The translations under genes were made by a program, and so were the position numbers. Of a stretch of DNA of 64,000 nt, positions 1 to 25,640 are shown piece after piece. The notes under the pieces are model-generated. The model did no database searches, had not been told where the DNA came from, and saw only the letters and a program-made list of their open reading frames with translations. Source of the stretch: Tachypleus tridentatus (Eukaryota > Arthropoda > Merostomata > Xiphosura > Limulidae); assembly GCF_004210375.1 (NCBI RefSeq), contig NC_134827.1:102781285-102845284 (forward strand). The letters are read 5' to 3'. Position 1 is the first letter of the stretch. Every line of letters starts with the position of its first letter.

Positions 1-3000
1 CTCTACCTTGATGAAAGTGATTATAACGTTTCTCTACCTTGATGAGAAGTGATTATAACGTTTCTCTACCTTGATGAGAAGTGATTATAACGTTTCTCTA
101 CCTTGATGAGAAGTGATTATAATGTTTCTTACCTTGATGAGAAGTGATTATAACGTTTCTCTACCTTGATGAGAAGTGATTATAACGTTTCTCTACCTTG
201 ATGAGAAGTGATTATAGCGTTTCTCTACCTTGATGAGAAGTGATTATAACGTTTCTCTACCTTGATGAGAAGTGATTATAATGTTTCTCTACCTTGATGA
301 GAAGTGATTATAATGTTTCTCTACCTTGATGAGAAGTGATTATAACGTTTCTCTACCTTGATGAGAAGTGATTATAACGTTTCTCTACCTTGATGAGAAG
401 TGATTATAACGTTTCTCTACCTTGATGAGAAGTGATTATAACGTTTCTCTACCTTGATGAGAAGTGATTATAACGTTTCTCTACCTTGATGAGAAGTGAT
501 TATAACGTTTCTCTACCTTGATGAGAAGTGATTATAACGTTTCTCTACCTTGATGAGAAGTGATTACAGTGTTTCTCTACCTTGATGAGAAGTGATTATA
601 ACGTTTCTCTACCTTGATGAGAAGTGATTATAGTGTTTCTCTACCTTGATGAGAAGTGATTATAACGTTTCTCTACCTTGATGAGAAGTGATTATAACGT
701 TTCTCTACCTTGATGAGAAGTGATTATAGCGTTTCTCTACCTTGATGAGAAGTGATTATAGCGTTTCTCTACCTTGATGAGAAGTGATTATAACGTTTCT
801 CTACCTTGATGAGAAGTGATTATAATGTTTTTCTACCTTGATGAGAAGTGATTATAATGTTCTCACCTTGATGAGAAGTGATTATAATGTTTTCTACCTT
901 GATGAGAAGTGATTATAATGTTTCTCTACCTTGATGAGAAGTGATTATAATGTTTCTCTACCTTGATGAGAAGTGATTACAGTGTTTCTCTACCTTGATG
1001 AGAAGTGATTATAACGTTTCTCTACCTTGATGAGAAGTGATTATAACGTTTCTCTACCTTGATGAGAAGTGATTATAACCTTTCTCTACCTTGATGCGAA
1101 GTGATTATAACGTTTCTCTACCTTGATGAGAAGTGATTATAATGTTTCTCTACCTTGATGAGAAGTGATTATAACGTTTCTCTACCTTGATGAGAAGTGA
1201 TTATAACGTTTCTCTACCTTGATGAGAAGTGATTATAAGCGTTTCTCTACCTTGATGAGAAGTGATTATAACGTTTCTCTACCTTGATGAGAAGTGATTA
1301 TAACGTTTTCTACCTTGATGAGAAGTGATTATAATGTTTCTCTACCTTGATGAGAAGTGATTATAATGTTTCTCTACCTTGATGAGAAGTGATTATAACG
1401 TTTCTCTACCTTGATGAGAAGTGATTATAACGTTTCTCTACCTTGATGAGAAGTGATTATAACGTTTCTCTACCTTGATGAGAAGTGATTATAACGTTTC
1501 TCTACCTTGATGAGAAGTGATTATAACGTTTCTCTACCTTGATGAGAAGTGATTACAGTGTTTCTCTACCTTGATGAGAAGTGATTATAACGTTTCTCTA
1601 CCTTGATGAGAAGTGATTACAGTGTTTCTCTACCTTGATGAGAAGTGATTATAACGTTTCTCTACCTTGATGAGAAGTGATTATAATGTTTCTCTACCTT
1701 GATGAGAAGTGATTATAACGTTTCTCTACCTTGATGAGAAGTGATTATAACGTTTCTCTACCTTGATGAGAAGTGATTATAATGTTTTCTACCTTGATGA
1801 GAAGTGATTATAACGCTTCTCTACCTTGATGAGAAGTGATTATAGCGTTTCTCTACCTTGATGAGAAGTGATTATAACGATTCTCTACCTTGATGAGAAG
1901 TGATTATAATGTTTCTCTACCTTGATGAGAAGTGATTACAGTGTTTCTCTACCTTGATGAGAAGTGATTATAACGTTTCTCTACCTTGATGAGAAGTGAT
2001 TACAGTGTTTCTCTACCTTGATGAGAAGTGATTATAACGTTTCTCTACCTTGATGAGAATTGATTACAGTGTTTCTCTACCTTGATGAGAAGTGATTATA
2101 ACGTTTCTCTACCTTGATGAGAAGCGATTATAACGCTTCTCTACCTTGATGAGAAGTGATTATAACGTTTCTCTACCTTGATGAGAAGTGATTATAACGC
2201 TTCTCTACCTTGATGAGAAGTGATTATAGCGTTTCTCTACCTTGATGAGAAGTGATTATAACGATTCTCTACCTTGATGAGAAGTGATTATAACGTTTCT
2301 CTACCTTGATGAGAAGTGATTATAACGTTTCTCTACCTTGATGAGAAGTGATTATAACGTTTCTCTACCTTGATGAGAAGTGATTATAACGTTTCTCTAC
2401 CTTGATGAGAAGTGATTATAACGTTTCTCTACCTTGATGAGAAGTGATTATAACGTTTCTCTACCTTGATGAGAAGTGATTATAACGTTTCTCTACCTTG
2501 ATGAGAAGTGATTATAACGCTTCACTACCTTGATGAGAAGTGATTATAGCGTTTCTCTACCTTGATGAGAAGTGATTATAACGATTCTCTACCTTGATGA
2601 GAAGTGATTATAATGTTTCTCTACCTTGATGAGAAGTGATTACAGTGTTTCTCTACCTTGATGAGAAGTGATTATAACGTTTCTCTACCTTGATGAGAAG
2701 TGATTACAGTGTTTCTCTACCTTGATGAGAAGTGATTATAACGTTTCTCTACCTTGATGAGAAGTGATTACAGTGTTTCTCTACCTTGATGAGAAGTGAT
2801 TATAACGTTTCTCTACCTTGATGAGAAGTGATTACAGTGTTTCTCTACCTTGATGAGAAGTGATTATAACGTTTCTCTACCTTGATGAGAAGTGATTATA
2901 ATGTTTCTCTACCTTGATGAGAAGTGATTATAACGTTTCTCTACCTTGATGAGAAGTGATTATAACGTTTCTCTACCTTGATGAGAAGTGATTATAACGT

Positions 3001-6000
3001 TTCTCTACCTTGATGAGAAGTGATTATAACGTTTCTCTACCTTGATGAGAAGTGATTATAACGTTTCTCTACCTTGATGAGAAGTGATTATAGCGTTTCT
3101 CTACCTTGATGAGAAGTGATTATAACGTTTCTCTACCTTGATGAGAAGTGATTATAACGTTTCTCTACCTTGATGAGAAGTGATTATAACGTTTCTCTAC
3201 CTTGATGAGAAGTGATTACAGTGTTTCTCTACCTTGATGAGAAGTGATTATAACGTTTCTCTACCTTGATGAGAAGTGATTATAACGTTTCTCTACCTTG
3301 ATGAGAAGTGATTATAACGTTTCTCTACCTTGATGAGAAGTGATTATAACGTTTCTCTACCTTGATGAGAAGTGATTATAACGTTTCTCTACCTTGATGA
3401 GAAGTGATTATAATGTTTTTCTACCTTGATGAGAAGTGATTATAATGTTTCTCTACCTTGATGAGAAGTGATTATAATGTTTCTCTACCTTGATGAGAAG
3501 TGATTACAGTGTTTCTCTACCTTGATGAGAAGTGATTATAACGTTTCTCTACCTTGATGAGAAGTGATTATAACGTTTCTCTACCTTGATGAGAAGTGAT
3601 TATAACGTTTCTCTACCTTGATGAGAAGTGATTATAACGTTTCTCTACCTTGATGAGAAGTGATTATAACGTTTCTCTACCTTGATGAGAAGTGATTATA
3701 ACGTTTCTCTACCTTGATGAGAAGTGATTATAACGTTTCTCTACCTTGATGAGAAGTGATTATAACGTTTCTCTACCTTGATGAGAAGTGATTATAACGT
3801 TTCTCTACCTTGATGAGAAGTGATTATAACGTTTCTCTACCTTGATGAGAAGTGATTATAGCGTTTCTCTACCTTGATGAGAAGTGATTATAACGTTTCT
3901 CTACCTTGATGAGAAGTGATTATAACGTTTCTCTACCTTGATGAGAAGTGATTATAACGTTTCTCTACCTTGATGAGAAGTGATTATAACGTTTCTCTAC
4001 CTTGATGAGAAGTGATTATAACGTTTCTCTACCTTGATGAGAAGTGATTATAACGTTTCTCTACCTTGATGAGAAGTGATTATAACGTTTCTCTACCTTG
4101 ATGAGAAGTGATTATAACGTTTCTCTACCTTGATGAGAAGTGATTATAGTGTTTCTCTACCTTGATGAGAAGTGATTATAACGTTTCTCTACCTTGATGA
4201 GAAGTGATTATAGTGTTTCTCTACCTTGATGAGAAGTGATTATAACGTTTCTCTACCTTGATGAGAAGTGATTATAACGTTTCTCTACCTTGATGAGAAG
4301 TGATTATAGCGTTTCTCTACCTTGATGAGAAGTGATTATAGCGTTTCTCTACCTTGATGAGAAGTGATTATAACGTTTCTCTACCTTGATGAGAAGTGAT
4401 TATAATGTTTTCTACCTTGATGAGAAGTGATTATAATGTTTCTCTACCTTGATGAGAAGTGATTATAATGTTTCTCTACCTTGATGAGAAGTGATTATAA
4501 TGTTTCTCTACCTTGATGAGAAGTGATTATAATGTTTCTCTACCTTGATGAGAAGTGATTACAGTGTTTCTCTACCTTGATGAGAAGTGATTATAACGTT
4601 TCTCTACCTTGATGAGAAGTGATTATAACGTTTCTCTACCTTGATGAGAAGTGATTATAACGTTTCTCTACCTTGATGAGAAGTGATTATAACGTTTCTC
4701 TACCTTGATGAGAAGTGATTATAATGTTTCTCTACCTTGATGAGAAGTGATTATAACGTTTCTCTACCTTGATGAGAAGTGATTATAACGTTTCTCTACC
4801 TTGATGAGAAGTGATTATAACGTTTCTCTACCTTGATGAGAAGTGATTATAACGTTTCTCTACCTTGATGAGAAGTGATTATAATGTTTCTCTACCTTGA
4901 TGAGAAGTGATTATAACGTTTCTCTACCTTGATGAGAAGTGATTATAATGTTTCTCTACCTTGATGAGAAGTGATTATAACGTTTCTCTACCTTGATGAG
5001 AAGTGATTATAACGTTTCTCTACCTTGATGAGAAGTGATTATAACGTTTCTCTACCTTGATGAGAAGTGATTATAACGTTTCTCTACCTTGATGAGAAGT
5101 GATTATAACGTTTCTCTACCTTGATGAGAAGTGATTACAGTGTTTCTCTACCTTGATGAGAAGTGATTATAACGTTTCTCTACCTTGATGAGAAGTGATT
5201 ACAGTGTTTCTCTACCTTGATGAGAAGTGATTATAACGTTTCTCTACCTTGATGAGAAGTGATTATAATGTTTCTCTACCTTGATGAGAAGTGATTATAA
5301 CGTTTCTCTACCTTGATGAGAAGTGATTATAACGTTTCTCTACCTTGATGAGAAGTGATTATAATGTTTTTCTACCTTGATGAGAAGTGATTATAACGCT
5401 TCTCTACCTTGATGAGAAGTGATTATAACGTTTCTCTACCTTGATGAGAAGTGATTATAACGATTCTCTACCTTGATGAGAAGTGATTATAATGTTTCTC
5501 TACCTTGATGAGAAGTGATTATAGTGTTTCTCTACCTTGATGAGAAGTGATTATAACGTTTCTCTACCTTGATGAGAAGTGATTACAGTGTTTCTCTACC
5601 TTGATGAGAAGTGATTATAACGTTTCTCTACCTTGATGAGAAGTGATTACAGTGTTTCTCTACCTTGATGAGAAGTGATTATAACGTTTCTCTACCTTGA
5701 TGAGAAGTGATTATAACGCTTCTCTACCTTGATGAGAAGTGATTATAACGTTTCTCTACCTTGATGAGAAGTGATTATAACGCTTCTCTACCTTGATGAG
5801 AAGTGATTATAGCGTTTCTCTACCTTGATGAGAAGTGATTATAACGTTTCTCTACCTTGATGAGAAGTGATTATAACGTTTCTCTACCTTGATGAGAAGT
5901 GATTATACGTTTCTCTACCTTGATGAGAAGTGATTATAACGTTTCTCTACCTTGATGAGAAGTGATTATAACGCTTCTCTACCTTGATGAGAAGTGATTA

Positions 6001-9000
6001 TAACGATTCTCTACCTTGATGAGAAGTGATTATAACGTTTCTCTACCTTGATGAGAAGTGATTATAACGTTTCTCTACCTTGATGAGAAGTGATTACAGT
6101 GTTTCTCTACCTTGATGAGAAGTGATTATAACGTTTCTCTACCTTGATGAGAAGTGATTACAGTGTTTCTCTACCTTGATGAGAAGTGATTATAACGTTT
6201 CTCTACCTTGATGAGAAGTGATTATAATGTTTCTCTACCTTGATGAGAAGTGATTATAACGTTTCTCTACCTTGATGAGAAGTGATTATAACGTTTCTCT
6301 ACCTTGATGAGAAGTGATTATAATGTTTTCTACCTTGATGAGAAGTGATTATAACGCTTCTCTACCTTGATGAGAAGTGATTATAGCGTTTCTCTACCTT
6401 GATGAGAAGTGATTATAACGATTCTCTACCTTGATGAGAAGTGATTATAATGTTTCTCTACCTTGATGAGAAGTGATTACAGTGTTTCTCTACCTTGATG
6501 AGAAGTGATTATAACGTTTCTCTACCTTGATGAGAAGTGATTACAGTGTTTCTCTACCTTGATGAGAAGTGATTATAACGTTTCTCTACCTTGATGAGAA
6601 GTGATTACAGTGTTTCTCTACCTTGATGAGAAGTGATTATAACGTTTCTCTACCTTGATGAGAAGTGATTATAACGCTTCTCTACCTTGATGAGAAGTGA
6701 TTATAACGTTTCTCTACCTTGATGAGAAGTGATTATAACGCTTCTCTACCTTGATGAGAAGTGATTATAACGTTTCTCTACCTTGATGAGAAGTGATTAT
6801 AACGTTTCTCTACCTTGATGAGAAGTGATTATAACGTTTCTCTACCTTGATGAGAAGTGATTATACGTTTCTCTACCTTGATGAGAAGTGATTATAACGT
6901 TTCTCTACCTTGATGAGAAGTGATTATAACGCTTCTCTACCTTGATGAGAAGTGATTATAACGATTTCTCTACCTTGATGAGAAGTGATTATAATGTTTC
7001 TCTACCTTGATGAGAAGTGATTATAACGTTTCTCTACCTTGATGAGAAGTGATTACAGTGTTTCTCTACCTTGATGAGAAGTGATTATAACGTTTCTCTA
7101 CCTTGATGAGAAGTGATTATAACGTTTTTCTACCTTGATGAGAAGTGATTATAACGTTTCTCTACCTTGATGAGAAGTGATTATAATGTTTCTCTACCTT
7201 GATGAGAAGTGATTATAACGTTTCTCTACCTTGATGAGAAGTGATTATAACGTTTCTCTACCTTGATGAGAAGTGATTATAGCGTTTCTGTACCTTGATG
7301 AGAAGTGATTATAACGTTTCTCTACCTTGATGAGAAGTGATTATAACGCTTCTCTACCATGATGAGAAGTGATTATAGCGTTTCTCTACCTTGATGAGAA
7401 GTGATTATAACGATTCTCTACCTTGATGAGAAGTGATTATAATGTTTCTCTACCTTGATGAGAAGTGATTACAGTGTTTCTCTACCTTGATGAGAAGTGA
7501 TTATAACGTTTCTCTACCTTGATGAGAAGTGATTACAGTGTTTCTCTACCTTGATGAGAAGTGATTATAACGTTTCTCTACCTTGATGAGAAGTGATTAC
7601 AGTGTTTCTCTACCTTGATGAGAAGTGATTATAACGTTTCTCTACCTTGATGAGAAGTGATTACAGTGTTTCTCTACCTTGATGAGAAGTGATTATAACG
7701 TTTCTCTACCTTGATGAGAAGTGATTACAGTGTTTCTCTACCTTGATGAGAAGTGATTATAACGTTTCTCTACCTTGATGAGAAGTGATTATAACGTTTC
7801 TCTACCTTGATGAGAAGTGATTATAACGTTTCTCTACCTTGATGAGAAGTGATTATAACGTTTCTCTACCTTGATGAGAAGTGATTATAACGTTTCTCTA
7901 CCTTGATGAGAAGTGATTATAGCGTTTCTCTACCTTGATGAGAAGTGATTATAACGTTTCTCTACCTTGATGAGAAGTGATTATAACGTTTCTCTACCTT
8001 GATGAGAAGTGATTATAACGTTTCTCGACCTTGATGAGAAGTGATTACAGTGTTTCTCTACCTTGATGAGAAGTGATTATAACGTTTCTCTACTTTAATG
8101 AGAAGTGATTATAACGTTTCTCTACCTTGATGAGAAGTGATTATAATGTTTCTCTACCTTGATGAGAAGTGATTATAACGTTTCTCTACCTTGATGAGAA
8201 GTGATTATAACGTTTCTCTACCTTGATGAGAAGTGATTATAACGTTTCTCTACCTTGATGAGAAGTGATTATAATGTTTCTCTACCTTGATGAGAAGTGA
8301 TTATAATGTTTCTCTACCTTGATGAGAAGTGATTACAGTGTTTCTCTACCTTGATGAGAAGTGATTATAACGTTTTTCTACCTTGATGAGAAGTGATTAT
8401 AACGTTTCTCTACCTTGATGAGAAGTGATTATAACGTTTCTCTACCTTGATGAGAAGTGATTATAACGTTTCTCTACCTTGATGAGAAGTGATTATAACG
8501 TTTCTCTACCTTGATGAGAAGTGATTATAACGTTTCTCTACCTTGATGAGAAGTGATTATAATGTTTTTCTACCTTGATGAGAAGTGATTATAATGTTTC
8601 TCTACCTTGATGAGAAGTGATTATAATGTTTTTCTACCTTGATGAGAAGTGATTATAATGTTTCTCTACCTTGATGAGAAGTGATTATAATGTTTCTCTA
8701 CCTTGATGAGAAGTGATTACAGTGTTTCTCTACCTTGATGAGAAGTGATTATAACGTTTCTCTACCTTGATGAGAAGTGATTATAACGTTTCTCTACCTT
8801 GATGAGAAGTGATTATAACGTTTCTCTACCTTGATGAGAAGTGATTATACGTTTCTCTACCTTGATGAGAAGTGATTATAACGTTTCTCTACCTTGATGA
8901 GAAGTGATTATAACGCTTCTCTACCTTGATGAGAAGTGATTATAACGATTCTCTACCTTGATGAGAAGTGATTATAATGTTTCTCTACCTTGATGAGAAG

Positions 9001-12000
9001 TGATTATAACGTTTCTCTACCTTGATGAGAAGTGATTATAACGTTTCTCTACCTTGATGAGAAGTGATTATAACGTTTCTCTACCTTGATGAGAAGTGAT
9101 TATAACGTTTCTCTACCTTGATGAGAAGTGATTATAATGTTTCTCTACCTTGATGAGAAGTGATTATAACGTTTCTCTACCTTGATGAGAAGTGATTATA
9201 ACGTTTCTCTACCTTGATGAGAAGTGATTATAACGTTTCTCTACCTTGATGAGAAGTGATTATAAGGCTTTCTCTACCTTGATGAGAAGTGATTATAACG
9301 TTTCTCTACCTTGATGAGAAGTGATTATAACGTTTCTCTACCTTGATGAGAAGTGATTATAACGTTTCTCTACCTTGATGAGAAGTGATTATAACGTTTC
9401 TCTACCTTGATGAGAAGTGATTATAACGCTTCTCTACCTTGATGAGAAGTGATTATAACGTTTCTCTACCTTGATGAGAAGTGATTATAACGATTCTCTA
9501 CCTTGATGAGAAGTGATTATAACGCTTCTCTACCTTGATGAGAAGCGATTATAACGCTTCTCTACCTTGATGAGAAGCGATTATAACGCTTCTCTACCTT
9601 GATGAGAAGTGATTATAACGTTTCTCTACCTTGATGAGAAGTGATTATAACGCTTCCCTACCTTGATGAGAAGTGATTATAACGCTTCACTACCTTGATG
9701 AGAAGTGATTATAGCGTTTCTCTACCTTGATGAGAAGTGATTATAACGTTTCTCTACCTTGATGAGAAGTGATTATAACGTTTCTCTACCTTGATGAGAA
9801 GTGATTATAACGTTTCTCTACCTTGATGAGAAGTGATTACAGTGTTTCTCTACCTTGATGAGAAGTGATTATAACGTTTCTCTACCTTGATGAGAAGTGA
9901 TTATAACGTTTCTCTACCTTGATGAGAAGTGATTATAACGTTTCTCTACCTTGATGAGAAGTGATTATAACGTTTCTCTACCTTGATGAGAAGTGATTAT
10001 AATGTTTTTCTACCTTGATGAGAAGTGATTATAATGTTTCTCTACCTTGATGAGAAGTGATTATAATGTTTCTCTACCTTGATGAGAAGTGATTACAGTG
10101 TTTCTCTACCTTGATGAGAAGTGATTATAACGTTTCTCTACCTTGATGAGAAGTGATTATAACGTTTCTCTACCTTGATGAGAAGTGATTATAACGTTTC
10201 TCTACCTTGATGAGAAGTGATTATAACGTTTCTCTACCTTGATGAGAAGTGATTATAACGTTTCTCTACCTTGATGAGAAGTGATTATAATGTTTCTCTA
10301 CCTTGATGAGAAGTGATTATAACGTTTCTCTACCTTGATGAGAAGTGATTATAACGTTTCTCTACCTTGATGAGAAGTGATTATAGCGTTTCTCTACCTT
10401 GATGAGAAGTGATTATAACGTTTCTCTACCTTGATGAGAAGTGATTATAATGTTTTCTACCTTGATGAGAAGTGATTATAATGTTTCTCTACCTTGATGA
10501 GAAGTGATTATAATGTTTCTCTACCTTGATGAGAAGTGATTATAAAGTTTCTCTACCTTGATGAGAAGTGATTATAACGTTTCTCTACCTTGATGAGAAG
10601 TGATTATAACGTTTCTCTACCTTGATGAGAAGTGATTATAACGTTTCTCTACCTTGATGAGAAGTGATTACAGTGTTTCTCTACCTTGATGAGAAGTGAT
10701 TATAACGTTTCTCTACCTTGATGAGAAGTGATTACAGTGTTTCTCTACCTTGATGAGAAGTGATTATAACGTTTCTCTACCTTGATGAGAAGTGATTATA
10801 ATGTTTCTCTACCTTGATGAGAAGTGATTATAACGTTTCTCTACCTTGATGAGAAGTGATTATAGCGTTTCTCTACCTTGATGAGAAGTGATTATAACGT
10901 TTCTCTACCTTGATGAGAAGTGATTATAATGTTTTCTACCTTGATGAGAAGTGATTATAATGTTTCTCTACCTTGATGAGAAGTGATTATAATGTTTTCT
11001 ACCTTGATGAGAAGTGATTATAATGTTTCTCTACCTTGATGAGAAGTGATTATAATGTTTCTCTACCTTGATGAGAAGTGATTACAGTGTTTCTCTACCT
11101 TGATGAGAAGTGATTATAACGTTTCTCTACCTTGATGAGAAGTGATTATAACGTTTCTCTACCTTGATGAGAAGTGATTATAACGTTTCTCTACCTTGAT
11201 GAGAAGTGATTATAACGTTTCTCTACCTTGATGAGAAGTGATTATAATGTTTCTCTACCTTGATGAGAAGTGATTATAACGTTTCTCTACCTTGATGAGA
11301 AGTGATTATAACGTTTCTCTACCTTGATGAGAAGTGATTATAACGTTTCTCTACCTTGATGAGAAGTGATTATAGCGTTTCTCTACCTTGATGAGAAGTG
11401 ATTATAACGTTTCTCTACCTTGATGAGAAGTGATTATAATGTTTTTCTACCTTGATGAGAAGTGATTATAATGTTTCTCTACCTTGATGAGAAGTGATTA
11501 TAATGTTTCTCTACCTTGATGAGAAGTGATTATAACGTTTCTCTACCTTGATGAGAAGTGATTATAACGTTTCTCTACCTTGATGAGAAGTGATTATAAC
11601 GTTTCTCTACCTTGATGAGAAGTGATTATAACGTTTCTCTACCTTGATGAGAAGTGATTATAACGTTTCTCTACCTTGATGAGAAGTGATTACAGTGTTT
11701 CTCTACCTTGATGAGAAGTGATTATAACGTTTCTCTACCTTGATGAGAAGTGATTACAGTGTTTCTCTACCTTGATGAGAAGTGATTATAACGTTTCTCT
11801 ACCTTGATGAGAAGTGATTATAATGTTTCTCTACCTTGATGAGAAGTGATTATAACGTTTCTCTACCTTGATGAGAAGTGATTATAACGTTTCTCTACCT
11901 TGATGAGAAGTGATTATAATGTTTTTCTACCTTGATGAGAAGTGATTATAACGCTTCTCTACCTTGATGAGAAGTGATTATAGCGTTTCTCTACCTTGAT

Positions 12001-15000
12001 GAGAAGTGATTATAACGATTCTCTACCTTGATGAGAAGTGATTATAATGTTTCTCTACCTTGATGAGAAGTGATTACAGTGTTTCTCTACCTTGATGAGA
12101 AGTGATTATAACGTTTCTCTACCTTGATGAGAAGTGATTACAGTGTTTCTCTACCTTGATGAGAAGTGATTATAACGTTTCTCTACCTTGATGAGAATTG
12201 ATTACAGTGTTTCTCTACCTTGATGAGAAGTGATTATAACGTTTCTCTACCTTGATGAGAAGCGATTATAACGCTTCTCTACCTTGATGAGAAGTGATTA
12301 TAACGTTTCTCTACCTTGATGAGAAGTGATTATAACGCTTCTCTACCTTGATGAGAAGTGATTATACGTTTCTCTACCTTGATGAGAAGTGATTATAACG
12401 TTTCTCTACCTTGATGAGAAGTGATTATAACGCTTCTCTACCTTGATGAGAAGTGATTATAACGATTCTCTACCTTGATGAGAAGTGATTATAATGTTTC
12501 TCTACCTTGATGAGAAGTGATTATAACGTTTCTCTAACTTGATGAGAAGTGATTACAGTGTTTCTCTACCTTGATGAGAAGTGATTATAACGTTTCTCTA
12601 CCTTGATGAGAAGTGATTATAACGTTTCTCTACCTTGATGAGAAGTGATTATAATGTTTCTCTACCTTGATGAGAAGTGATTATAACGTTTCTCTACCTT
12701 GATGAGAAGTGATTATAACGTTTCTCTACCTTGATGAGAAGTGATTATAGCGTTTCTCTACCTTGATGAGAAGTGATTATAACGTTTCTCTACCTTGATG
12801 AGAAGTGATTATAACGCTTCTCTACCATGATGAGAAGTGATTATAGCGTTTCTCTACCTTGATGAGAAGTGATTATAACGATTCTCTACCTTGATGAGAA
12901 GTGATTATAATGTTTCTCTACCTTGATGAGAAGTGATTACAGTGTTTCTCTACCTTGATGAGAAGTGATTATAACGTTTCTCTACCTTGATGAGAAGTGA
13001 TTACAGTGTTTCTCTACCTTGATGAGAAGTGATTATAACGTTTCTCTACCTTGATGAGAAGTGATTACAGTGTTTCTCTACCTTGATGAGAAGTGATTAT
13101 AACGTTTCTCTACCTTGATGAGAAGTGATTACAGTGTTTCTCTACCTTGATTAGAAGTGATTATAACGTTTCTCTACCTTGATGAGAAGTGATTACAGTG
13201 TTTCTCTACCTTGATGAGAAGTGATTATAACGTTTCTCTACCTTGATGAGAAGTGATTATAACGTTTCTCTACCTTGATGAGAAGTGATTATAACGTTTC
13301 TCTACCTTGATGAGAAGTGATTATAACGTTTCTCTACCTTGATGAGAAGTGATTATAACGTTTCTCTACCTTGATGAGAAGTGATTATAGCGTTTCTCTA
13401 CCTTGATGAGAAGTGATTATAACGTTTCTCTACCTTGATGAGAAGTGATTATAACGTTTCTCTACCTTGATGAGAAGTGATTATAACGTTTCTCGACCTT
13501 GATGAGAAGTGATTACAGTGTTTCTCTACCTTGATGAGAAGTGATTATAATGTTTTTCTACCTTGATGAGAAGTGATTATAATGTTTCTCTACCTTGATG
13601 AGAAGTGATTATAATGTTTCTCTACCTTGATGAGAAGTGATTACAGTGTTTCTCTACCTTGATGAGAAGTGATTATAACGTTTTTCTACCTTGATGAGAA
13701 GTGATTATAATGTTTCTCTACCTTGATGAGAAGTGATTATAACGTTTCTCTACCTTGATGAGAAGTGATTATAACGTTTCTCTACCTTGATGAGAAGTGA
13801 TTATAACGTTTCTCTACCTTGATGAGAAGTGATTATAACGTTTCTCTACCTTGATGAGAAGTGATTATAGCGTTTCTCTACCTTGATGAGAAGTGATTAT
13901 AACGTTTCTCTACCTTGATGAGAAGTGATTATAACGTTTCTCTACCTTGATGAGAAGTGATTATAACGTTTCTCGACCTTGATGAGAAGTGATTACAGTG
14001 TTTCTCTACCTTGATGAGAAGTGATTATAATGTTTTTCTACCTTGATGAGAAGTGATTATAATGTTTCTCTACCTTGATGAGAAGTGATTATAATGTTTC
14101 TCTACCTTGATGAGAAGTGATTACAGTGTTTCTCTACCTTGATGAGAAGTGATTATAACGTTTTTCTACCTTGATGAGAAGTGATTATAATGTTTCTCTA
14201 CCTTGATGAGAAGTGATTATAGCGTTTCTCTACCTTGATGAGAAGTGATTATAACGTTTCTCTACCTTGATGAGAAGTGATTATAGCGTTTCTCTACCTT
14301 GATGAGAAGTGATTATAACGTTTCTCTACCTTGATGAGAAGTGATTATAATGTTTCTCTACCTTGATGAGAAGTGATTATAATGTTTCTCTACCTTGATG
14401 AGAAGTGATTATAATGTTTTTCTACGTTGATGAGAAGTGATTATAATGTTTCTCTACCTTGATGAGAAGTGATTATAATGTTTCTCTACCTTGATGAGAA
14501 GTGATTACAGTGTTTCTCTACCTTGATGAGAAGTGATTATAACGTTTCTCTACCTTGATGAGAAGTGATTATAACGTTTCTCTACCTTGATGAAGTGATT
14601 ATAACGTTTCTCTACCTTGATGAGAAGTGATTATAACGTTTCTCTACCTTGATGAGAAGTGATTATACGTTTCTCTACCTTGATGAGAAGTGATTATAAC
14701 GTTTCTCTACCTTGATGAGAAGTGATTATAACGCTTCTCTACCTTGATGAGAAGTGATTATAACGATTCTCTACCTTGATGAGAAGTGATTATAATGTTT
14801 CTCTACCTTGATGAGAAGTGATTATAACGTTTCTACCTTGATGAGAAGTGATTATAACGTTTCTCTACCTTGATGAGAAGTGATTATAACGTTTCTCTAC
14901 CTTGATGAGAAGTGATTATAACGTTTCTCTACCTTGATGAGAAGTGATTATAACGTTTCTCTACCTTGATGAGAAGTGATTATAATGTTTCTCTACCTTG

Positions 15001-15144
15001 ATGAGAAGTGATTATAATGTTTCTCTACCTTGATGAGAAGTGATTATAACGTTTCTCTACCTTGATGAGAAGTGATTATAACGTTTCTCTACCTTGATGA
15101 GAAGTGATTATAACGTTTCTCTAGCCTGATAGAAAGTGATTAAA
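1..15144. repeat. 32-bp minisatellite, about 470 tandem copies, intronic
   Basis: The stretch is made of one 32-bp unit repeated head to tail; its core reads CTACCTTGATGAGAAGTGAT. The array is already running at position 1, so its true 5' end lies outside the window. It decays in a last degenerate unit at about 15121-15144. Copies differ mostly in the spacer after the core (forms containing AACGTT, AATGTT, AGCGTT, ACAGTG, AACGCT or AACGAT), with a few 1-3 base length changes. The right flank is the same as that of the 17-copy array at 55620-56185. That second array sits between two PLAT exons, so this one lies in the same intron of the other gene copy. No coding role is likely: all frames are interrupted. 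Confidence 0.98.
13250..14220. repeat. Exact 480-bp tandem duplication inside the 32-bp array
   Basis: About 13261-13740 and 13741-14220 match line for line, an offset of 480 bp or 15 units. The shared block includes a rare unit variant reading CTCGACC (13492 and 13972). The match breaks just after 14220, where AACG becomes AGCG. This is a recent duplication of a 15-unit block. Confidence 0.85.
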
Positions 15145-15411
15145 ACACTGAATTGTTGATGATTTCGTTGCAAATGCTCCTAGGTGTTTACATAAGTCAG
15201 TCAACAAATATATGTTTGTTACAGATATATGGGTGACATTCTTGTACATTTGTTTCTCAGTACTTGGTGAAGTTGCTAGTATAGAATTCATGAAAGGTTA
15301 TTTAGCAGGAGTATTCAGATCACTTTGTAATAGTTCATGAATTTATTCTCTTTGTAGAATATCTTTTAAAAATTCAAGTACCATATAATTTGTATTGATT
15401 TGTTTATTCAG

Positions 15412-15579
15412 GTACTTAAAGAAAATCCTGGTTAGAGACATCCAGACAAATCGTGCTTGGCTCTTTATTGCAGAGCATTGGCTAGACATCACAACTGAGG
15501 GATTACACTGCCATTTAAAACCTACTTCTCAAAAAGACATTTCTAATTTTTCCCTCAAGTTTAATGACACCAGTATAAG
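15412..15579 (+). CDS. Polycystin-1-like, copy 1: last PLAT-domain exon
   Basis: This exon encodes the C-terminal part of a PLAT/LH2 domain, the cytosolic beta-sandwich that follows the first membrane helix in polycystin-1 proteins. It reads YLKKILVRDIQTNRAW followed by LFIAEHWLDI, matching the typical end of PLAT (LVRDLQT, W.F...WL). It is bordered by an AG acceptor at 15410-15411 and a GT donor at 15580. It starts with one base completing a Trp codon and ends with two bases of an Arg codon, which the next exon completes. The 168-bp length is identical in the second copy (56453-56620). The preceding PLAT exons of this copy are outside the window, beyond the 32-bp array. Reading on past the donor hits a stop at once, which supports the splice. 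Confidence 0.85.
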
Positions 15580-17281
15580 GTCAGAAATATTCCGTGACTG
15601 AATATATATAAAATTACTACTCAGGGATACACATTGCTTGTTTTTTGTATATATGAGCTCAAACATTATATATGTGATAATCTACAGGCAATCTATGATT
15701 CACAAATATCAATCGATCATTTACCATCCCTTATTACAAACTCAGACTTGATTAGAAAAAGTGAAAAGTTAATTTATATACCTTCCTCTTTATGCCACTC
15801 AAAACATGGATGTATATACTTTTTAAAATAAAAATACTGAATTGAGTTTTTCCTCAGAAAAATTGGGAAAATTCTCTTCAGTGGTTTGGTTTAAAAATGA
15901 ACACGAGACACAAATCAGACAAATATTCAGCCGTATTACTGTAAGACTGATTTCTGCACAGTTGTAGAGTAATACGACTCATATTTTATTAGGCTAAAGA
16001 TATCTAATCACAGAATCTGAAAGTAAAACGTTTTTACTTTATCTAAACTCTATAAATAAAAGTAGAAATTCTTGATTATTCTCATGATGTTATGAGTATC
16101 TAAAGATAGCAAAATACATTTACATTTTTTACAACAAAATATTGTGGTTTTGAAATTAAGTTACAGAAATTCATAATTATTCTTATGATATTTCATACAG
16201 CAGTTTACTGGCCCTTATGTAGCTAAAATAATCAGTTGATAGCTTAATTAGATATATAATAGTCTGTTAATGAAAGGTATGGTGTATCTTGATTTTTACG
16301 TGTTTCAGTGACATGGTATGAACTCAATAACCCTAACTCACACGAATCTTCTAAGACAAGTAACTTACTAACTGAACTGTTAGGGTTTAAAACGTCTGGA
16401 TCATTCATAGACTACAGCAAAACTTTTGTAAATGTTTAGGAGTTAGATTACTAATGTTAATGATGCCATGTTGTTAGTAAAATACCGTATTTAACAAGTT
16501 AATAATTGTTTTCTGTCATATCATAAAGTTTTGTGATGTCTTACAACATGATTACTAAAAAACAACTGAATGAGTCTATATACAGGGTTGAGTACATAAT
16601 ATGAAAATGAGTTTGAATAGACATATTGACCATTTACATCACAACTACAACCTGTACAAATCATCAGTGAAACAGTTTCAAAACTATATGTCTCAAGTAA
16701 TTGTATGTAAAATAATCAAAACGGTTCTCTGTCTGGAAAAGCAACACAAGTTGCTTCCATCACATATAAAGTCAATCAATCACATACCTGAAACAGTTGG
16801 AGAATGAAGTGAATATTAATGTTATTCAAGGCAAAGACACATCAATCAAATCACCATATTAGCAACTAGGAGTTTCTGCATAATGGGACTGTTAAAACTG
16901 GTATTGGATGATGGAAAGCTACAGAGAGGAGTGATGTGCTTTAGACATGACAGCTTTATGATGGAACATGTTGCAGTGATGCCCACTGTGCTTTACAGGG
17001 CAATTGTTAAGATACATGGTTAGGAGATAAGGCGTGACCAGATATGGTAACATGGACTGTACAATGTGATAAAGCTACAAAATTATTTTAATGTGATATA
17101 CTCAACCTGCTTTATATGTGTAATATCTGTTATTCTTACATTATGTTAATATTGACTGAGTAACACTTGAAAGTCAGACAATCTAAATTGGTTCATGTAT
17201 TAAAAGGAGCTCAAAATTGTAAAGCTGCTTTTAACAGTAAATCATAATAAAGTCTTGTTCTTATCTGTATTTTGTGAACAG
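15580..17281 (+). other. Intron between PLAT exon and TM2-TM3 exon, copy 1
   Basis: This is AT-rich intron with several short chance frames that lack domain character. It is nearly identical to 56621-58376, except for a local inversion near 15932-15976 and a stretch of about 60 bp that is missing here. I see no extra exon. Confidence 0.7.
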
Positions 17282-17548
17282 GTCTTTTCAGGATATAAAC
17301 CTTTGGTCCAGTATTTTTTTGCGCCCTGCACATAGCAACTTCACGAGGGTTCAGAGAATTACGTGTGCTTTGTCTCTGGTGTTGACAACCATGGTGTGTA
17401 ACACCATGTTTTATGGAATCAATGTTTATGACACTGAAGACCAATTAGAAATTTGGAAGTTTAGTGTTTCTTCAAGCCACGTTATCACCGGGATTGAAAG
17501 CAGTTTGATTGCATTCATGGTGAATGTGTTAATTATTACATTGTTTAG
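17282..17548 (+). CDS. Polycystin-1-like, copy 1: TM2-TM3 exon
   Basis: This exon encodes the link after PLAT and two membrane helices. The segment HSNFTRVQRITCALSL resembles the polycystin-1 segment with F-T-R-V-Q-R-x-T-C just before TM2. TM2 continues through TTMVCNTMFYG. TM3 is about GIESSLIAFMVNVLIITLF. The acceptor is AACAG at 17277-17281 and the donor AG|GTAGGT at 17549. Phases match both neighbours: the incoming two-base Arg codon is completed by G, and the outgoing AG is completed by A at 20012. The 267-bp length keeps the frame open; the second copy is one base longer. The protein is a plasma- or ciliary-membrane receptor-like subunit by family. Confidence 0.87.
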
Positions 17549-20011
17549 GTAGGTGCTGATTTCTCTGATATTTCAGTTTAAATCCACAACATATTTTAAA
17601 TGGGGAAAAAATAATAATTCATATATAGTTTTCTTTTTTGTACCCTTGCAAACTAAACACGCTTTTTCATGTATTAGTTATTTGATGATTTTGAAGAGCT
17701 CATCTGTCAGTTATGTGTACGACTTTAAGGTAGCGCTGTTAAAAATATAAATATTTTGTTTTGTTGTATTTATATCAGTAAATGTTTTACATTATACATT
17801 AACTTTCAGTACCTGAAAAGTCAGAAAAATAACATATGGATCATTGATTGTTATTAAACAATTACCTTTTCCTATAACCACCATACTGAATTATCTAATG
17901 ACGTGTTTACATATCCTATAGAATCAGCTGGAAGTCAGGGTTCCAGCTTGGAGTCCCAGTTGAGGGAAAGTTACATTTCATCTCTTTAGATTTTTAAAGT
18001 AGTAGTAATTGTAGTATTCGAAAAGCTGTCGAGAAAGTGTTTTTTTTTATTTGTGGATTTATAAATTATATCCTGTTTTCAACTAATTTAACTTAATCTG
18101 ATTATATTTACTCCTTGAAAATGAAATTGTAACATAGTAGTGACTACAGTATTGTGAAAAATCATGTTTTTTCACCTGGGGTTAAAAATTACATTCTATC
18201 AAACGTGCCTGCCCTTTCAGCTGTGGGGGTGTTATAATATTATACGATCGATCCCACTGTTCATTGGTAAAAGAGTAGTCCAAGAGTTGGCGGTGAGTGG
18301 TAACGACTAGCTGCCTTCTATCTAGTCTTACACTGCTAAATTAGGGACAGCTAGCACAGATAGCCCTTCTGTAACTTTGTGCAAAATTAAAAAAAAAAAA
18401 AGGAAGAGATATATCATGCCTTAGAAGAACTAAATGAAAATTGTATGAGATTTTTGCAATATTCATTTCACGTTATCACTGTTGTATTTGAAAGCTACAG
18501 GAATGTTTGCCAGAAAAAAATTGCAAAGAACTTACTACACCTGATGTCTGTGACATGCAAACTGGCACACAATGGTCATGAGCTACTTAATCTGGAAAAT
18601 GACAGAGTAAATAAACTCTTTACAACGAATAAAATCTGTTTTCAGCATTAAACATTTCTTGGAAACATGTATTTAATAAAAAATTCATAGATTGATAGTT
18701 GTTGGAATCAGAAGACAGTTAATTAACTGTATCCATCACTTCTGAGGGTTTGACCATCTATTTCCATACACTCTGGCTTTGCTATTTATTGGATTTCATT
18801 TTTAAGTTTCCCATGTGAAGTATTCTCTGTCCAGCTGAGCAGTATTACCAAACAATCTGGTTTTGTAAATTCTCCTCACAATGTCAATGAAATCTTACAT
18901 ATGGCATGAAACCATAGTTTGTGGGAAAAGGAAAAGTCCAAACCATATATATACCTGACAGCCACACTGGATGGATTAACATATTAAAACTTAAACTGAT
19001 CAAAATTAATTTGCTTGGAACATTGTTTTTGATTATAGTTTTTGTAAACCATTAAAAGGGACTAATAAAACACAAATGGTAATCCATAAAAAAAAATGTA
19101 ACCTAAAAAGATAGGCTTAGCATAAGTTACATAATACCAGTATTGCCTCATTTAGTGAATGGCATAACATTCTGTATAGATTTTGGTTTTTTTATCATCT
19201 ATATGTTTTATATTCTACTTCCTAGAATTTCCTGTACTCAGAAGCATGGGTTCCTATAAAAAGTATATTTATGAGGTTTTCAGTTCTTTGTAACTCACCT
19301 TGTAGTAACCTAAGTCAATTTAGGTGTTTGAATAACATTGTCATTGCATTTCATTTATTATTTGATATTTTACAGTAGGCCAGTTGTTTAATGATTAAAG
19401 ATTACAAAGAATATTAGATATAAACTTGATGTAGAGGTCTAATGCATTATTTGAATTCTATGCCTTCAACTAACTGAAAGTTAAACTCATTAAGACTAAA
19501 GTAATTAGAAGTACAATTGATTAAAGATTAACGTTATTCAGACAATGATAAATAATTAATAATATTTATTTACAGAATTAATTAATTTATTCTACATTAA
19601 ATAATGAAAAGTTTCAGGTAATTTAGAATTAAATTCATTCAAACTAAAATATTTAAGATAATCAGTAAGTTCCACACAAAAAAAAATGCACACAGCAGTG
19701 TCGTTATTTGTTTCATCAGACCTATTTATAAATAATTAAACAACTAAATCTGTTTTAATATACAGTTTTGGTAGTTTCTTAACTTGTTTTTAATTTGACT
19801 TAAAATACTATATTTTATTGGTGTTCTGAAATTTTCATAATTCTTCCTTATCTATGTGTTTACTTGCATTTAGTATATATAGTGTTTATCAGATGTAATG
19901 TTAATTAATAAGTCTTAATATTTAGAAAGTCGAATAATAATAATAGGTTTGTGTTATAATGACTACTTATTGTATAGCTAATTCCATTATTGTTGGTGAT
20001 ACTATTTTTAG
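17549..20011 (+). other. Intron between TM2-TM3 and TM4-TM5 exons, copy 1
   Basis: This is AT-rich intron of about 2.5 kb. It holds one 5'-truncated SINE (about 18199-18402) ending in an A-run. The rest shows no recognisable gene. The open frame that starts upstream at 19959 is read-through of the intron into the next exon. Confidence 0.7.
18199..18402 (+). mobile_element. tRNA-derived SINE, 5'-truncated, with A-tail
   Basis: The body shares its order of blocks with the fuller SINE at 40943-41211: GCCTGCCCTTTCAGCTGTGG, then TTGGTAAAAGAGTAG, then CTAGCTGCCTTC, then ACTGCTAAATTAGGGACAGC, and a 3' end before an A-run. The tRNA-like head is missing. The same insertion is present at 59293-59494, so it predates the split of the two copies. 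Confidence 0.8.
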
Positions 20012-20638
20012 AAATGTTAGTCCATGTCCTGACCAAAGCGTGAAACAAGACCAAATGAAATCAGAAGTGAACCCAAGTCTTAATGAGGAAAGCAGACCTG
20101 TTATGTTAGAAGAAAATGTTTCTGGTCCAAGCTCAGTGACTGAACAAATACCAGTTATTACTGACATTCAAAACATTTCTGAGAGTGTTTCCAATGAAAC
20201 AACAAAACTACAGACAGGTAACTCATCCTCATATCAGTGGTGGTTTGGTCAGGACAAACATTCCATAAAATCTGCTCATCGGTCCTTCTGGGAAAATCAT
20301 GGAAACGAGGAATGTAGTTTGCCTCAAGGCTGGTTTCTTCGTCCGGTTGTTAACTATTTAATTTATGGAGCAGATCAAGAAACAGCCAAGACCAGTGGCA
20401 CCACAGAAATGACTGCTCGCCCTTGTTTATCTTGGTGGTTTATCTATATAATTTGGACTTTAGCTGTCTTGACCTTAGTGACCAGTTCATTCTTTATCGT
20501 ACTGTATGGGTTAACATATGGTTACAAACGAAGTTTGGGTGGCTCTTATCAGTGGTTACTGCTGTATTCCACAGTCTAATAATTATACAGCCATTAATGT
20601 CGGTTACTTATGCTATCTTGCTGGCATGGATGGTCAAA
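20012..20638 (+). CDS. Polycystin-1-like, copy 1: cytosolic loop and TM4-TM5 exon, one base short
   Basis: The exon begins with a hydrophilic, Ser/Thr/Asn-rich cytosolic loop of about 125 residues (from NVSPCPDQSVKQ). Two membrane helices follow: TM4 around SWWFIYIIWTLAVLTLVTSS with SFFIVLYGLTYG, and TM5 around WLLSVVTAVFHSLIIIQPL. Segments such as FFIVLYGL and LIIIQPL are typical of polycystin-1 in this position. The acceptor TTTTTAG ends at 20011 and the phase fits the AG left by the previous exon. The donor is AAA|GTAAGC at 20639. Near 20535-20540 one base is missing compared with copy 2 (RSLG against RSLEW), which shifts the frame and causes an early stop at about 20579. Because copy 2 is intact at that point, an assembly error or allele-specific lesion is more likely than a real family feature. 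Confidence 0.85.
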
Positions 20639-20852
20639 GTAAGCATAATTTTATTCTTCTTTACAGGTTTATGGTTAATTATTATTAATCTTTAAACTGC
20701 CTTTTTGGTAAGAATGGTGCAGATTAGACAAGTTACAGATGCAAATTAACGAAAATTATAAATGTTTCGTTTTTGTAATACTTTAGAAGTTATTTAGTCC
20801 ATGAGAATTTAAGCCAGTATTGTGAACTTCATTATTTTTCACTATATTACAG

Positions 20853-21200
20853 AAACCTCCAGTTTTAATGGACAGGAATGATAACACTGCTCTTGAACGA
20901 GGTGAAGCGTATGTGTCTTCATCGGTGCAACAGATGTTATTGCGTAAAAAAGAAAATAAATCGGAAGACATTTCAGCCGAACCTTTATCAAAGGAAGCCC
21001 ATGAAAAACTAAAGACACTTTGGATAAAACAGAAACTTATTTTAAAATTAATCAAAGAAGTATCAGTGTATGTTCTATTTGCTGTTGCTACTTTTATAGC
21101 TGTGCACGGACATCGCTCACCTTTGGCATACTATGGCACCAAGACGGCTAAAGACGTATTCGTCAGAGGGCACTACACGCATTCAATGCCCTTGAAGAAT
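20853..21200 (+). CDS. Polycystin-1-like, copy 1: TM6 exon leading into the TOP domain
   Basis: This exon of 116 codons starts KPPVLMDRNDNTALERGE, a charged cytosolic stretch, then a basic segment (IKQKLILKLIKE). TM6 is VSVYVLFAVATFIAVHG. The extracellular part HRSPLAYYGTKTAKDVF follows; it corresponds to the start of the polycystin (TOP) extracellular domain, where Y-x(n)-F-type residues precede the next helix. The acceptor is TATTACAG at 20852 and the donor AAT|GTGAGT at 21201; both ends are phase 0. This copy is fully open across the exon. The second copy (61949-62294) is two bases shorter and loses the frame. Confidence 0.88.
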
Positions 21201-21644
21201 GTGAGTATTACTGAAGAAAAGTTTGTTTTTTATCTATGATGTAGTTTGTTTGAAGTACAAACATATAGATCATAGCTCTGCCATATTTTGACCAGTTTAA
21301 GATCTTATTACAATTTTGTACTTAAGAGGTCACATCCTTTCATTTGATGTATTTGATCATAACCAAGGTGTCATAGATTAATCTACCTTAACCCTGCCTA
21401 AATGAATTGTAGTTTGAAAGTAAGCTGATAGAGATCCTGATGGTAAATAAATTGTAATCAGGATACCCCATGTGCACCCCATGCCCAAACATATAACTAA
21501 TAAAAATATAAAGGTATCATAGATTAATCTACTTTAATACTGTTAAAAGAATTTCAAGTGCCAAAGCTATTGAGGATTCCCTCAAGCTGATTCAATATAC
21601 AGTTATTTATTTATCATATTTTAATTTTTTTTCCTCCTTTTTAG
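21201..21644 (+). other. Short intron, copy 1
   Basis: This is a 444-bp intron. A phrase of about 20 bases around ATAGATTAATCTAC occurs twice, near 21370 and near 21518. Nothing else is seen. Confidence 0.7.
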
Positions 21645-21813
21645 GTAAGAAATTTCAAGGATGTCATTACTTTCATCAATCATACTTTAATTCCTAGTTT
21701 ACACATGGACCACAGGTATAATAAAGATAATATTAATTCTTTGGGCTTCACTGTAGACTGTGTTTCCAAGCTGGTTGGAGTACCACGGCTGAGACAACTT
21801 AGAGTAAAACCAG
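21645..21813 (+). CDS. Polycystin-1-like, copy 1: TOP-domain exon with LRQLRV motif
   Basis: This exon encodes part of the extracellular polycystin (TOP/PKD) domain between TM6 and TM7. It reads VRNFKDVITFINHTLIPSLH, with the LIPSL helix typical of the family. It continues with a Cys (DCVSKLVG) and GVPRLRQLRVKP. The string PRLRQLRV is the most diagnostic polycystin signature in the window. The acceptor is CTTTTTAG at 21644 and the donor CCAG|GTGAGA at 21814. It ends with one base of a codon, which the exon at 23591 completes. Length and frame are the same in the second copy (62738-62906). Confidence 0.92.
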
Positions 21814-22839
21814 GTGAGATGGTAAAATTGTATCACTTTGTGTTCCAGATGTATAATTTTCCATACAACCAACTTCTACAGAAATATCTTTTAAATAACA
21901 ACACACATCTGAGGATTTTCAGACAGTAATGGTGGTAACATTGTTTTCAAACTCTGCCATCATAACTGGTGTGTTTCTGTAAATCCCTTATTATTTTTTT
22001 TACCCACTCCATCAGTTATTAAGAGGGAAACTTGAAGGTGAATTAGGTTCTGAAACTAAATTACATGCATTCAACCTTCAATTTTGAGTATATCTATGTG
22101 AATATCTTTAAACCTATTAGTACACGTTTTAACCACTTGACTGTATGTAATTTATTAATATCAAATAATTTATAAGTAAAGTTTTCCACCTTCTGACCTG
22201 TTTCCAAAGCTGTTTGTTTGATATAAATAAAAACAGAATTCCATAACATACTGTTTCACAAAGTTTAACCAAGAGTTCAAAGATGTATAAATTGATAAAT
22301 TAGTAATCCCTATGTCTTTCTCTGTTTGATTCTCAAAATTGTTTTTTTTCACATTGATGCTTTAACTACAGTTGGTAATATAATTGTAATAATATCAAAT
22401 AATCCTTAAATACAGTTTATATATTCACAAGTAAAGATATGTATTTCTTTAGTGTTTTGATGAATCTTTAAAACTTGGCATATTGATGCAAGGAAATCAC
22501 ACAGAAATAAACTAACCACCATATTTTTCATATAACTTAATTATACAATTGAAAATTTTTGTAAGATACATGATAGTTGTGAACCATTATGAACTCATGC
22601 AGATCAGAAATTTTGTCCTAGCTAAGTTTAAACAGAGTCTTATATCTTTACATAGAAGAGCGAGTTTTCTCAGCCCAAACGAGCCGTTTTTGCATATAAA
22701 TTTCTCAACAAGTGGGTTTCTCGTCATCACTGATTAGAGTCTTATATCTCTTGTTATTTATAAGATCACTTCAAGTAGCCCTAGGGGCAGAGTAGCCTGT
22801 CTGCATACTTACATTGCTATAAATCATGTTTTGATATGC

Positions 22840-22906
22840 ATTATGGGCAGAGTACAGATCGCCCTTTGTGTAGCTTTGTCCTTAATTACAAAAACAAACA
22901 AGTAAA
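22840..22906 (+). mobile_element. SINE 3' remnant
   Basis: ACAGATCGCCC, then TGTAGCTTTGT, then a run with AAACAAACAAG matches the 3' end of the SINE family. A corresponding copy lies near 63910-63967. The head and body are absent. Confidence 0.5.
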
Positions 22907-22990
22907 CAGTAAAGTAGTTATAGTGCTAAGGCTAGAAAGAAACTAATTCTTGTATACAAGTTTTGGTGCACAACAGTTGCTGTAAGTTTG

Positions 22991-25566: not shown

Positions 25567-25640
25567 AAAAATTTTTATATAATTTTGTAAAATTGATGCA
25601 AGTTGTTAGTTATGTGATTTGTAATCTCACTGTTTGACAG

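What the first reader, a model, noticed from the sequence alone, without database searches (positions are those of the whole stretch)
1..15144. Extreme length difference of an intronic 32-bp VNTR: about 470 or more copies against about 17
The same 32-bp array with the same right flank occurs in both copies of the intron that splits the PLAT domain, but spans at least 15.1 kb in one and about 0.55 kb in the other. If the copies are alleles, this is a hypervariable VNTR that changes one intron from 1.65 kb to more than 15 kb, which could affect splicing or transcription of a large receptor gene.
Basis: partly seen in the sequence, partly recalled or inferred. Interest (0 to 1): 0.8.

Follow-up and report, generated by a model that had tools for sequence, protein, structure and literature searches.

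The report
Highly length-variable intronic repeat, horseshoe crab
In a horseshoe crab genome, a 32-base repeat inside an intron of a polycystin-like gene is about 18 copies long in one version of the gene and at least about 710 copies long in the other; this is an extreme case of a known kind of DNA variation, with no tested effect on the gene.

Summary
The window begins inside the array, which runs 22,807 bp (714.8 copies) from an assembly gap to window 15146, against 17.7 copies at 55621-56187. The genome is a horseshoe crab whose size nearly equals a published Tachypleus tridentatus assembly. The copies are best read as alleles, not duplicated genes. The long copy lies on a 32.7-kb gap-to-gap contig whose non-repeat part aligns, nearly throughout, to the short-copy contig at about 98%; the neighbouring contig is an inverted copy of a later stretch. 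A second copy of the short allele and the left arm of the long allele sit 13.5 Mb away. The array lies in the intron that splits a PLAT domain; splice sites are the same in both alleles. Total long-allele length is open: 22.8 kb is the floor, 25 to 39 kb possible. All six arrays compared differ between haplotypes, one 35.4 against about 4 kb. Human intronic VNTRs in CACNA1C and ABCA7 are comparable. Effects on splicing could not be tested.

The parts
1..15146 (+). Right part of the long 32-bp array (contig A). The array begins 7,660 bp left of the window at a 500-N gap; 22,807 bp assembled in all
   Evidence: TRF
15147..15411 (+). Unique right end of the intron in the long allele, ending in the acceptor CAG
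15412..15579 (+). Exon with the second half of the PLAT domain, long allele (3' exon end inferred from a GT)
   Evidence: for the start; 3' end by inspection
15147..25066 (+). Non-repeat right flank of contig A, aligned to 56188-66244 (98.3-99.6% identical per block, short breaks)
   Evidence: to the window end
25067..25566 (.). 500-N scaffold gap between contig A (long allele) and contig B (short allele)
54603..54802 (+). Exon with the first half of the PLAT domain, short allele
54803..56452 (+). Intron of the short allele, 1,650 bp, GT...AG, phase as required by the joined PLAT domain
55621..56187 (+). Short 32-bp array, 17.7 copies, degenerate units at both edges
56453..56620 (+). Exon with the second half of the PLAT domain, short allele (3' end inferred)
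   Evidence: 3' end by inspection
56188..64000 (+). Right flank of the short allele, counterpart of 15147-22935

Best explanation
This is a locus-specific intronic minisatellite (VNTR) with two very different alleles in one horseshoe crab assembly: 17.7 copies (0.57 kb) and at least 714.8 copies (22.8 kb, possibly 25-39 kb). Shown by the sequence: a short array intact with both flanks on two contigs (one of them a noisy near-copy of the other), and long arrays on two further contigs, one with the left flank (C3:116.33-116.35 Mb) and one with the right flank (in the window), each 1-2% different from the short copy. Inferred: these are two haplotypes of one locus, the long one broken inside its array. 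Inferred: the array grew in its interior by unequal exchange or copying between repeats, including blocks of about 110 units (3.5 kb). This adds intron length only; splice sites and the PLAT residues examined are unchanged, so the likeliest effect on the protein is none or small.
For: Contigs A (window -7661 to 25066) and X (-79827 to -8162) are bounded on both sides by 500-N gaps. A aligns directly and X inverted to contig B (56188-66244 and 116747-74095), 97.5-99.6% identical per block; A's flank ends and both X ends reach the gaps, and what does not align is mostly arrays. The left flank was found 3 times genome-wide (B, C, D) and the right flank 3 times (A, B, C). C is the B allele: its array has 0 mismatches and 3 gap columns to B; at right-flank sites where C matches one of A and B it sides with B at 30 of 30 (about 19 of these lie in one small rearranged stretch), at left-flank sites with B rather than D at 22 of 27. 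D differs from B at 30 of 2524 sites (1.19%), A from B at 30 of 1842 (1.63%; same rearranged stretch included). D carries 10.8 kb of array as read and reaches 15.8 kb by positions of a unit variant. Block duplication: D units 101-216 match 207-331 (101 of 113 aligned units identical), A 203-311 match 315-423 (81 of 108); scores 141 and 84 against 12-16 in 6 and 3 shuffles. The first 8 units of D and B agree at 6 of 8, mostly reference units.
Against: No reads, no second individual and no parents were available. C differs from B at 42 of 1890 right-flank sites (2.2%), more than A does, and 5 of 27 left-flank sites side with D; I read these as sequencing errors near a contig end, but they could mean a third haplotype. 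The start of contig A is noisy (34 of its first 112 units off-length or rare, against 61 of the other 602), so array length and order near the gap are unsafe, and part of the block duplication could be assembler looping. About 0.56 kb of B beside the 53-bp array has no aligned partner in X. The 7.85 kb between A and X has no second copy where probed (1.8 kb).
Confidence: 0.82

Rival explanations
1. True segmental duplication: two or more copies of the 3' half of the gene lie in tandem or inverted on one chromosome, and their arrays diverged in length.
For: Copies are separate places in a chromosome-scale scaffold, 41 kb and 13.5 Mb apart; three copies of each flank rather than two.
Against: Contigs A and X are bounded on both sides by 500-N gaps and show no join to foreign sequence. 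C ends at a gap 1.9 kb beyond the array. Divergence of 0.4-2.5% per block fits heterozygosity, and C has the same array as B. A further stretch has an inverted 96% copy nearby at 103.08 Mb, so the pattern is not confined to one duplicated piece. The outer end of D's array at its gap was not seen.
Confidence: 0.12
2. Assembly artefact: the long array is an over-extension of a short or moderate array by the assembler.
For: The array ends at a gap; the contig start is noisy; kb-scale similar blocks lie inside.
Against: Two contigs from opposite flanks, 13.5 Mb apart in the scaffold, both carry over 10 kb of array. Units differ by the same set of common variants in both, and blocks differ by such variants, not only by off-length units (12 of 27 differences in A and 4 of 25 in D involve off-length units). 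A 53-bp array of 35.4 kb is spanned within contig X, though it could be over-extended too.
Confidence: 0.06
3. The long allele alters the gene (not exclusive of the best explanation): the expanded intron lowers expression or causes skipping of the exon with the second half of the PLAT domain, as reported for human ABCA7.
For: Precedent in ABCA7 (PMC5954066, passages); the intron grows from 1.65 kb to over 23 kb against a published mean intron of 3,792 bp (PMC7011531, passages).
Against: Unlike ABCA7 the array does not touch the donor: in the short allele it starts 818 bp after it and ends 265 bp before the acceptor. No RNA data here.
Confidence: 0.12

Closest known systems
Human CACNA1C intronic 30-bp VNTR (TRACT), PMC13131567 (abstract and one results section read)
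   Same: Intronic, units of about 30 bp, in a cation-channel gene; alleles from 3 to over 30 kb; short and long alleles on separate haplotypes; a few common unit variants; longer perfect runs in the long allele (here 14 in A, 7 in D, 2 in B, not corrected for array length)
   Different: Unrelated sequence and host; here the short allele is much shorter (0.57 kb); population spread, expression and any trait links are unknown here
Human ABCA7 intron 18 25-bp VNTR, PMC5954066 (passages read, abstract among them)
   Same: Intronic VNTR with about 12 to 427 units; multiplies intron length
   Different: The ABCA7 array includes the splice donor and its length correlates with exon 19 skipping; here the array is away from both splice sites and no RNA was examined
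Heterotype false duplication (retained haplotypes), PMC9516828 (abstract read)
   Same: Two diverged haplotypes kept as separate pieces in one assembly
   Different: Here the haplotypes also differ by large array lengths, one piece is inverted and others lie 13.5 Mb away

Membership tests
Minisatellite / VNTR (definition recalled) | Head-to-tail units of roughly 6-100 bp | tested here: met
   32-bp unit, 95% match
Minisatellite / VNTR (definition recalled) | Single locus rather than dispersed satellite | tested here: met
   99 of 99 exact matches of a 28-mer unit variant lie in four arrays of this locus and its copies
Minisatellite / VNTR (definition recalled) | Alleles of different copy number | tested here: met
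   Two inferred haplotypes only: 17.7 against at least 714.8 copies; no population sample
Minisatellite / VNTR (definition recalled) | Germline mutation to new lengths | not testable with these tools
   Needs pedigrees
Splice-altering intronic VNTR (ABCA7 type) | Array overlaps or abuts a splice site | tested here: not met
   818 bp from donor, 265 bp from acceptor in the short allele; 265 bp from acceptor in the long one
Splice-altering intronic VNTR (ABCA7 type) | Exon skipping grows with length | not testable with these tools
   No RNA reads
Polycystin-1-like gene (domain set recalled) | PLAT domain | tested here: met
   51.2 bits, profile 13-105 of 117, after joining two exons
Polycystin-1-like gene (domain set recalled) | Polycystin / PKD channel domains downstream | tested here: met
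   PKD_channel 129.4 bits and Polycystin_dom 85.2 bits in the 380-aa ORF at L019:2509-3648 (2.5 kb right of the window); Polycystin_dom 31.4 bits at 62738-63019; one transcript not shown
Polycystin-1-like gene (domain set recalled) | GPS motif upstream | tested here: inconclusive
   16.4 bits, below the 22.5 cut-off
Retained haplotype contig | Extra copy contained in the other copy and bounded by gaps | tested here: met
   Contigs A and X; C seen at one end only, D at neither gap
Retained haplotype contig | Half read depth | not testable with these tools
   No reads

The most novel reading that the evidence does not exclude
Horseshoe crab genomes carry many locus-specific minisatellites whose two alleles in one animal can differ eight- to forty-fold or more, so that introns and gene neighbourhoods are polymorphic by tens of kilobases. 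In the one haplotype pair examined, 6 of 6 arrays of 150 bp or more differ in length, two of them by more than eight-fold. Such arrays would be a main reason why assemblies of one species break and differ in size.
Probability: 0.35. Interest if true: 0.55.

Novelty: new member of a known kind. Interest (0 to 1): 0.4.

Why it matters
It shows a very large allele-length difference in a gene intron of an old arthropod lineage, comparable to the extreme human cases, in a region where tandem arrays make up 37% of the 262.5 kb examined, both haplotypes counted. It also warns that an apparent gene duplication here is most likely two alleles kept apart by the assembler. It gives a concrete, sizeable marker for testing whether huge minisatellite alleles disturb a channel-receptor gene.

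Tried and rejected
Chance repeat: rejected (473.9 copies at 95%). Coding array: rejected, since the array lies between a GT and an AG whose removal joins a PLAT domain. Dispersed repeat: not supported; an exact unit variant is confined to this locus and its copies.

Third-haplotype or paralogue reading of copy C: the first percentages against C (20-21%) were inflated by a run of N and corrected (A-C 63 of 1835, B-C 42 of 1890). C then sided with B at informative sites.

Non-overlap of the left and right arms of the long allele: I first took the absence of a unit variant in the first 3.6 kb of contig A as evidence that the arms do not overlap. This failed, because that stretch is noisy. Three candidate registers came out, none convincing: start 5.6 kb into the left arm (total 28.4 kb), with 18 of 28 variant positions agreeing beyond the noisy start and 32 of 43 units identical at the held end; start 9.0 kb (total 31.8 kb), 6 of 9 positions; and a gapped unit alignment from unit 67 (total about 25 kb), 154 of 240 units identical with 49 gaps, 45 of 131 non-reference columns matching. 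Without overlap the total is at least 38.6 kb. I leave it open.

BLAST of the arrays against each other was uninformative: any register gives about 96% identity. Exact matches between A and the held part of D do not exceed 473 bp. A run-of-units test in A gave 17 against at most 16 in 40 shuffles, which is weak. Pfam on whole reading frames was rejected by the tool for stops; I used single exons and ORFs instead.
Full report
What is there. TRF finds the 32-bp array at window 1-15146 (473.9 copies) and 55621-56187 (17.7 copies) with one unit. The window is G000:C3:102781285-102845284 of a 2,167,478,450-base genome in 205 contigs. Fetching 100 kb on either side showed that the long array begins at the second base after a 500-N gap and spans 102773624-102796430, 22,807 bp, 714.8 copies.

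Whose genome. The Coagulin family PF02035 gives 19 matched pieces here and none in 14 control genomes, which points to a horseshoe crab (that Coagulin is peculiar to them is recalled). Table 1 of PMC7815833 (section 6 read) lists a Tachypleus tridentatus assembly, CNA0000821, of 2,167,470,406 bases in 204 scaffolds, contig N50 1.69 Mb; G000 is 8,044 bases and one sequence larger. I take the species as T. tridentatus by inference. The assembly paper itself (Gong 2019, reference 14 there) was not read.

The gene. The two exons that flank the short intron, joined, match PLAT with 51.2 bits, profile positions 13-105 of 117. The intron is 54803-56452, 1,650 bp, GT to AG; the same acceptor is at 15410-15411 in the long copy, and the donor GTTAGACAGC is present in copies B, C and D. 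The exon before the intron has 1 mismatch of 200 bases between D and B with the same residues, and the residues after it, as far as translated, are the same in A and B. Downstream on contig B, 2.5 kb beyond the window, a 380-aa ORF carries PKD_channel (129.4 bits) and Polycystin_dom (85.2 bits), and 62738-63019 carries the first part of Polycystin_dom (31.4 bits); a GPS motif upstream is below cut-off (16.4 against 22.5 bits). The best solved relatives of the ORF are PKD2L1 chains (E 1.9e-49), with PKD1L3 at 1.1e-30 and polycystin-1 at 1e-4. PLAT plus channel suggests a polycystin-1-like protein (domain set recalled); a single transcript was not shown.

Alleles or duplicates. Three 500-N gaps lie in the 264 kb. 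In window coordinates contig X is -79827 to -8162, contig A is -7661 to 25066, and contig B begins at 25567 and has no gap to the end of the stretch fetched. A aligns directly to B 56188-66244, and X aligns inverted to B 116747-74095, up to the gaps (pieces of 400 bp or more and over 90% identity). Per-block identity is 97.5-99.6%. What does not align is mostly tandem arrays; about 0.56 kb of B beside the 53-bp array also has no aligned partner. So A and X look like consecutive pieces of a second haplotype, one of them flipped, with 7.85 kb missing between them; a 1.8-kb probe in that stretch was found once genome-wide. Another probe at about 131 kb has an inverted 96% copy at C3:103.08 Mb, so the pattern continues outside.

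More copies. The left flank (1 kb) was found in 3 places and the right flank (0.8 kb) in 3 places genome-wide, all on C3. Copy C (116.30 Mb, minus) has both flanks and a short array, and meets a gap 1.9 kb beyond it. Its array equals B's with 0 mismatches and 3 gap columns over 534 bases. Where C matches exactly one of A and B in the right flank, it sides with B at 30 of 30 sites, about 19 of them in one 93-column stretch where A is rearranged; in the left flank it sides with B at 22 of 27 sites and with D at 5. Against this, C differs from B at 42 of 1890 right-flank sites, largely clustered, which I read as poor polishing near a contig end. Over 7.5 kb further upstream C and D are both 97-99% identical to B, and a fourth piece is 94% identical over 2.35 kb. 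Copy D (116.349 Mb, minus) has the left flank only, differs from B at 30 of 2524 sites, and runs into 10.8 kb of array as read and to at least 15.8 kb by positions of a unit variant. Counting haplotypes, B and C are the short allele, and D plus A are the left and right arms of the long one.

How long is the long allele. The A array alone is 22.8 kb, 40 times the short one. If the arms do not overlap, the total is at least 38.6 kb, about 1,205 copies. Candidate overlaps would give about 25, 28.4 or 31.8 kb, but none agrees well. The start of A is noisy: of its first 112 units, 34 are off-length or rare, against 61 of the other 602. I therefore give 22.8 kb as the floor and 25-39 kb as possible.

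How it changes. Of 714 units in A, 384 are the reference unit; the commonest changes are shared by A and D. The commonest substitution over A and D is C to T at position 23, the C of the unit's only CpG (254 of 983 full-length units), as expected if CpG sites decay (inference). Blocks recur: D units 101-216 with 207-331 (101 of 113 aligned units identical), A 203-311 with 315-423 (81 of 108), A 462-526 with D 82-143 (52 of 61); scores 141, 84 and 65 against 12-16 in 6, 3 and 6 shuffles. Longest runs of reference units are 14 in A, 7 in D and 2 in B, not corrected for array length. The first eight units of D and B agree at 6 of 8, and the last two of A and B agree, most of these being the common reference unit. 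This fits growth in the interior by unequal exchange or template copying, with stable edges; the mechanism is inferred, and assembler looping cannot be excluded for the most similar blocks.

Is it special here. Tandem arrays of 150 bp or more cover 96,656 of 262,500 known bases, both haplotypes counted. In the stretches where A or X aligns to B I compared each array of 150 bp or more: 32-bp 22.8+ against 0.57 kb; 53-bp 35.4 against 3.8 kb (4.2 kb with an adjoining 48-bp array of like sequence in B); 37-bp 1.22 against 2.95 kb; 74-bp 1.27 against 1.12 kb; 86-bp 5.31 against 5.23 kb; and a 24-bp array of 351 bp in B, where the matching unaligned gap in X is about 170 bp and was not itself read. 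All six differ, two by more than eight-fold; the last small differences could be assembly error. The 53-bp case is spanned within one contig. These are six arrays in one region, not a genome-wide sample.

What is known. PMC13131567 (abstract and one section read) describes a 30-bp intronic VNTR in human CACNA1C, 3 to over 30 kb, short and long alleles on separate haplotypes, with lower expression for long alleles in two tissues. PMC5954066 (passages) describes a 25-bp VNTR in ABCA7 intron 18, about 12 to 427 units, tied to exon 19 skipping, with the array containing the donor. Here the array lies 818 bp and 265 bp from the splice sites, so that route does not carry over directly. A search for 'horseshoe crab' with 'minisatellite' in the held library gave 2 papers, both on other subjects by title and abstract; this locus is not described in what I saw.

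Verdict. A known kind of feature of unusual size, most likely two alleles of an intronic VNTR that an assembly kept apart. The finding is confirmed and enlarged; the functional suggestion stays untested.

Noticed in passing
window -74962 to -39567 (L011-L015) and 106437-110283 (L023): A 53-bp array is 35.4 kb (622 copies) on contig X and 3.8 kb on contig B (4.2 kb with an adjoining like array), at matching places of the two haplotypes; spanned on X.
   Followed up: partly
window 15941-15978 against 56982-57074: By eye, a small inversion of about 36 bp between short inverted repeats, with about 55 extra bases in the short allele, separates the two alignment blocks.
   Followed up: no
window 19947-20579, 20826-21239 and 61037-62330: Reading frames of the same exons are shifted at different places in the two copies, which suggests uncorrected base errors in the assembly.
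   Followed up: no
window 30402-37709, 41621-42372, 43150-44709: Three more minisatellites on contig B: 52-bp (140.9 copies), 27-bp (27.4) and 34-bp (46.0).
   Followed up: no
G000:C3:106958364-106958693 and C3:107397309-107397638: Two PLAT matches with identical scores on opposite strands, perhaps another inverted haplotype pair.
   Followed up: no
G000:C3:116407537-116409918: A further, 94% identical copy of 2.35 kb of the region upstream of the short array, in addition to copies C and D.
   Followed up: no
L025:8548-8747: A dispersed element of about 200 bp with dozens of 90-94% copies on many contigs of the genome (best candidates only), SINE-like in size.
   Followed up: no
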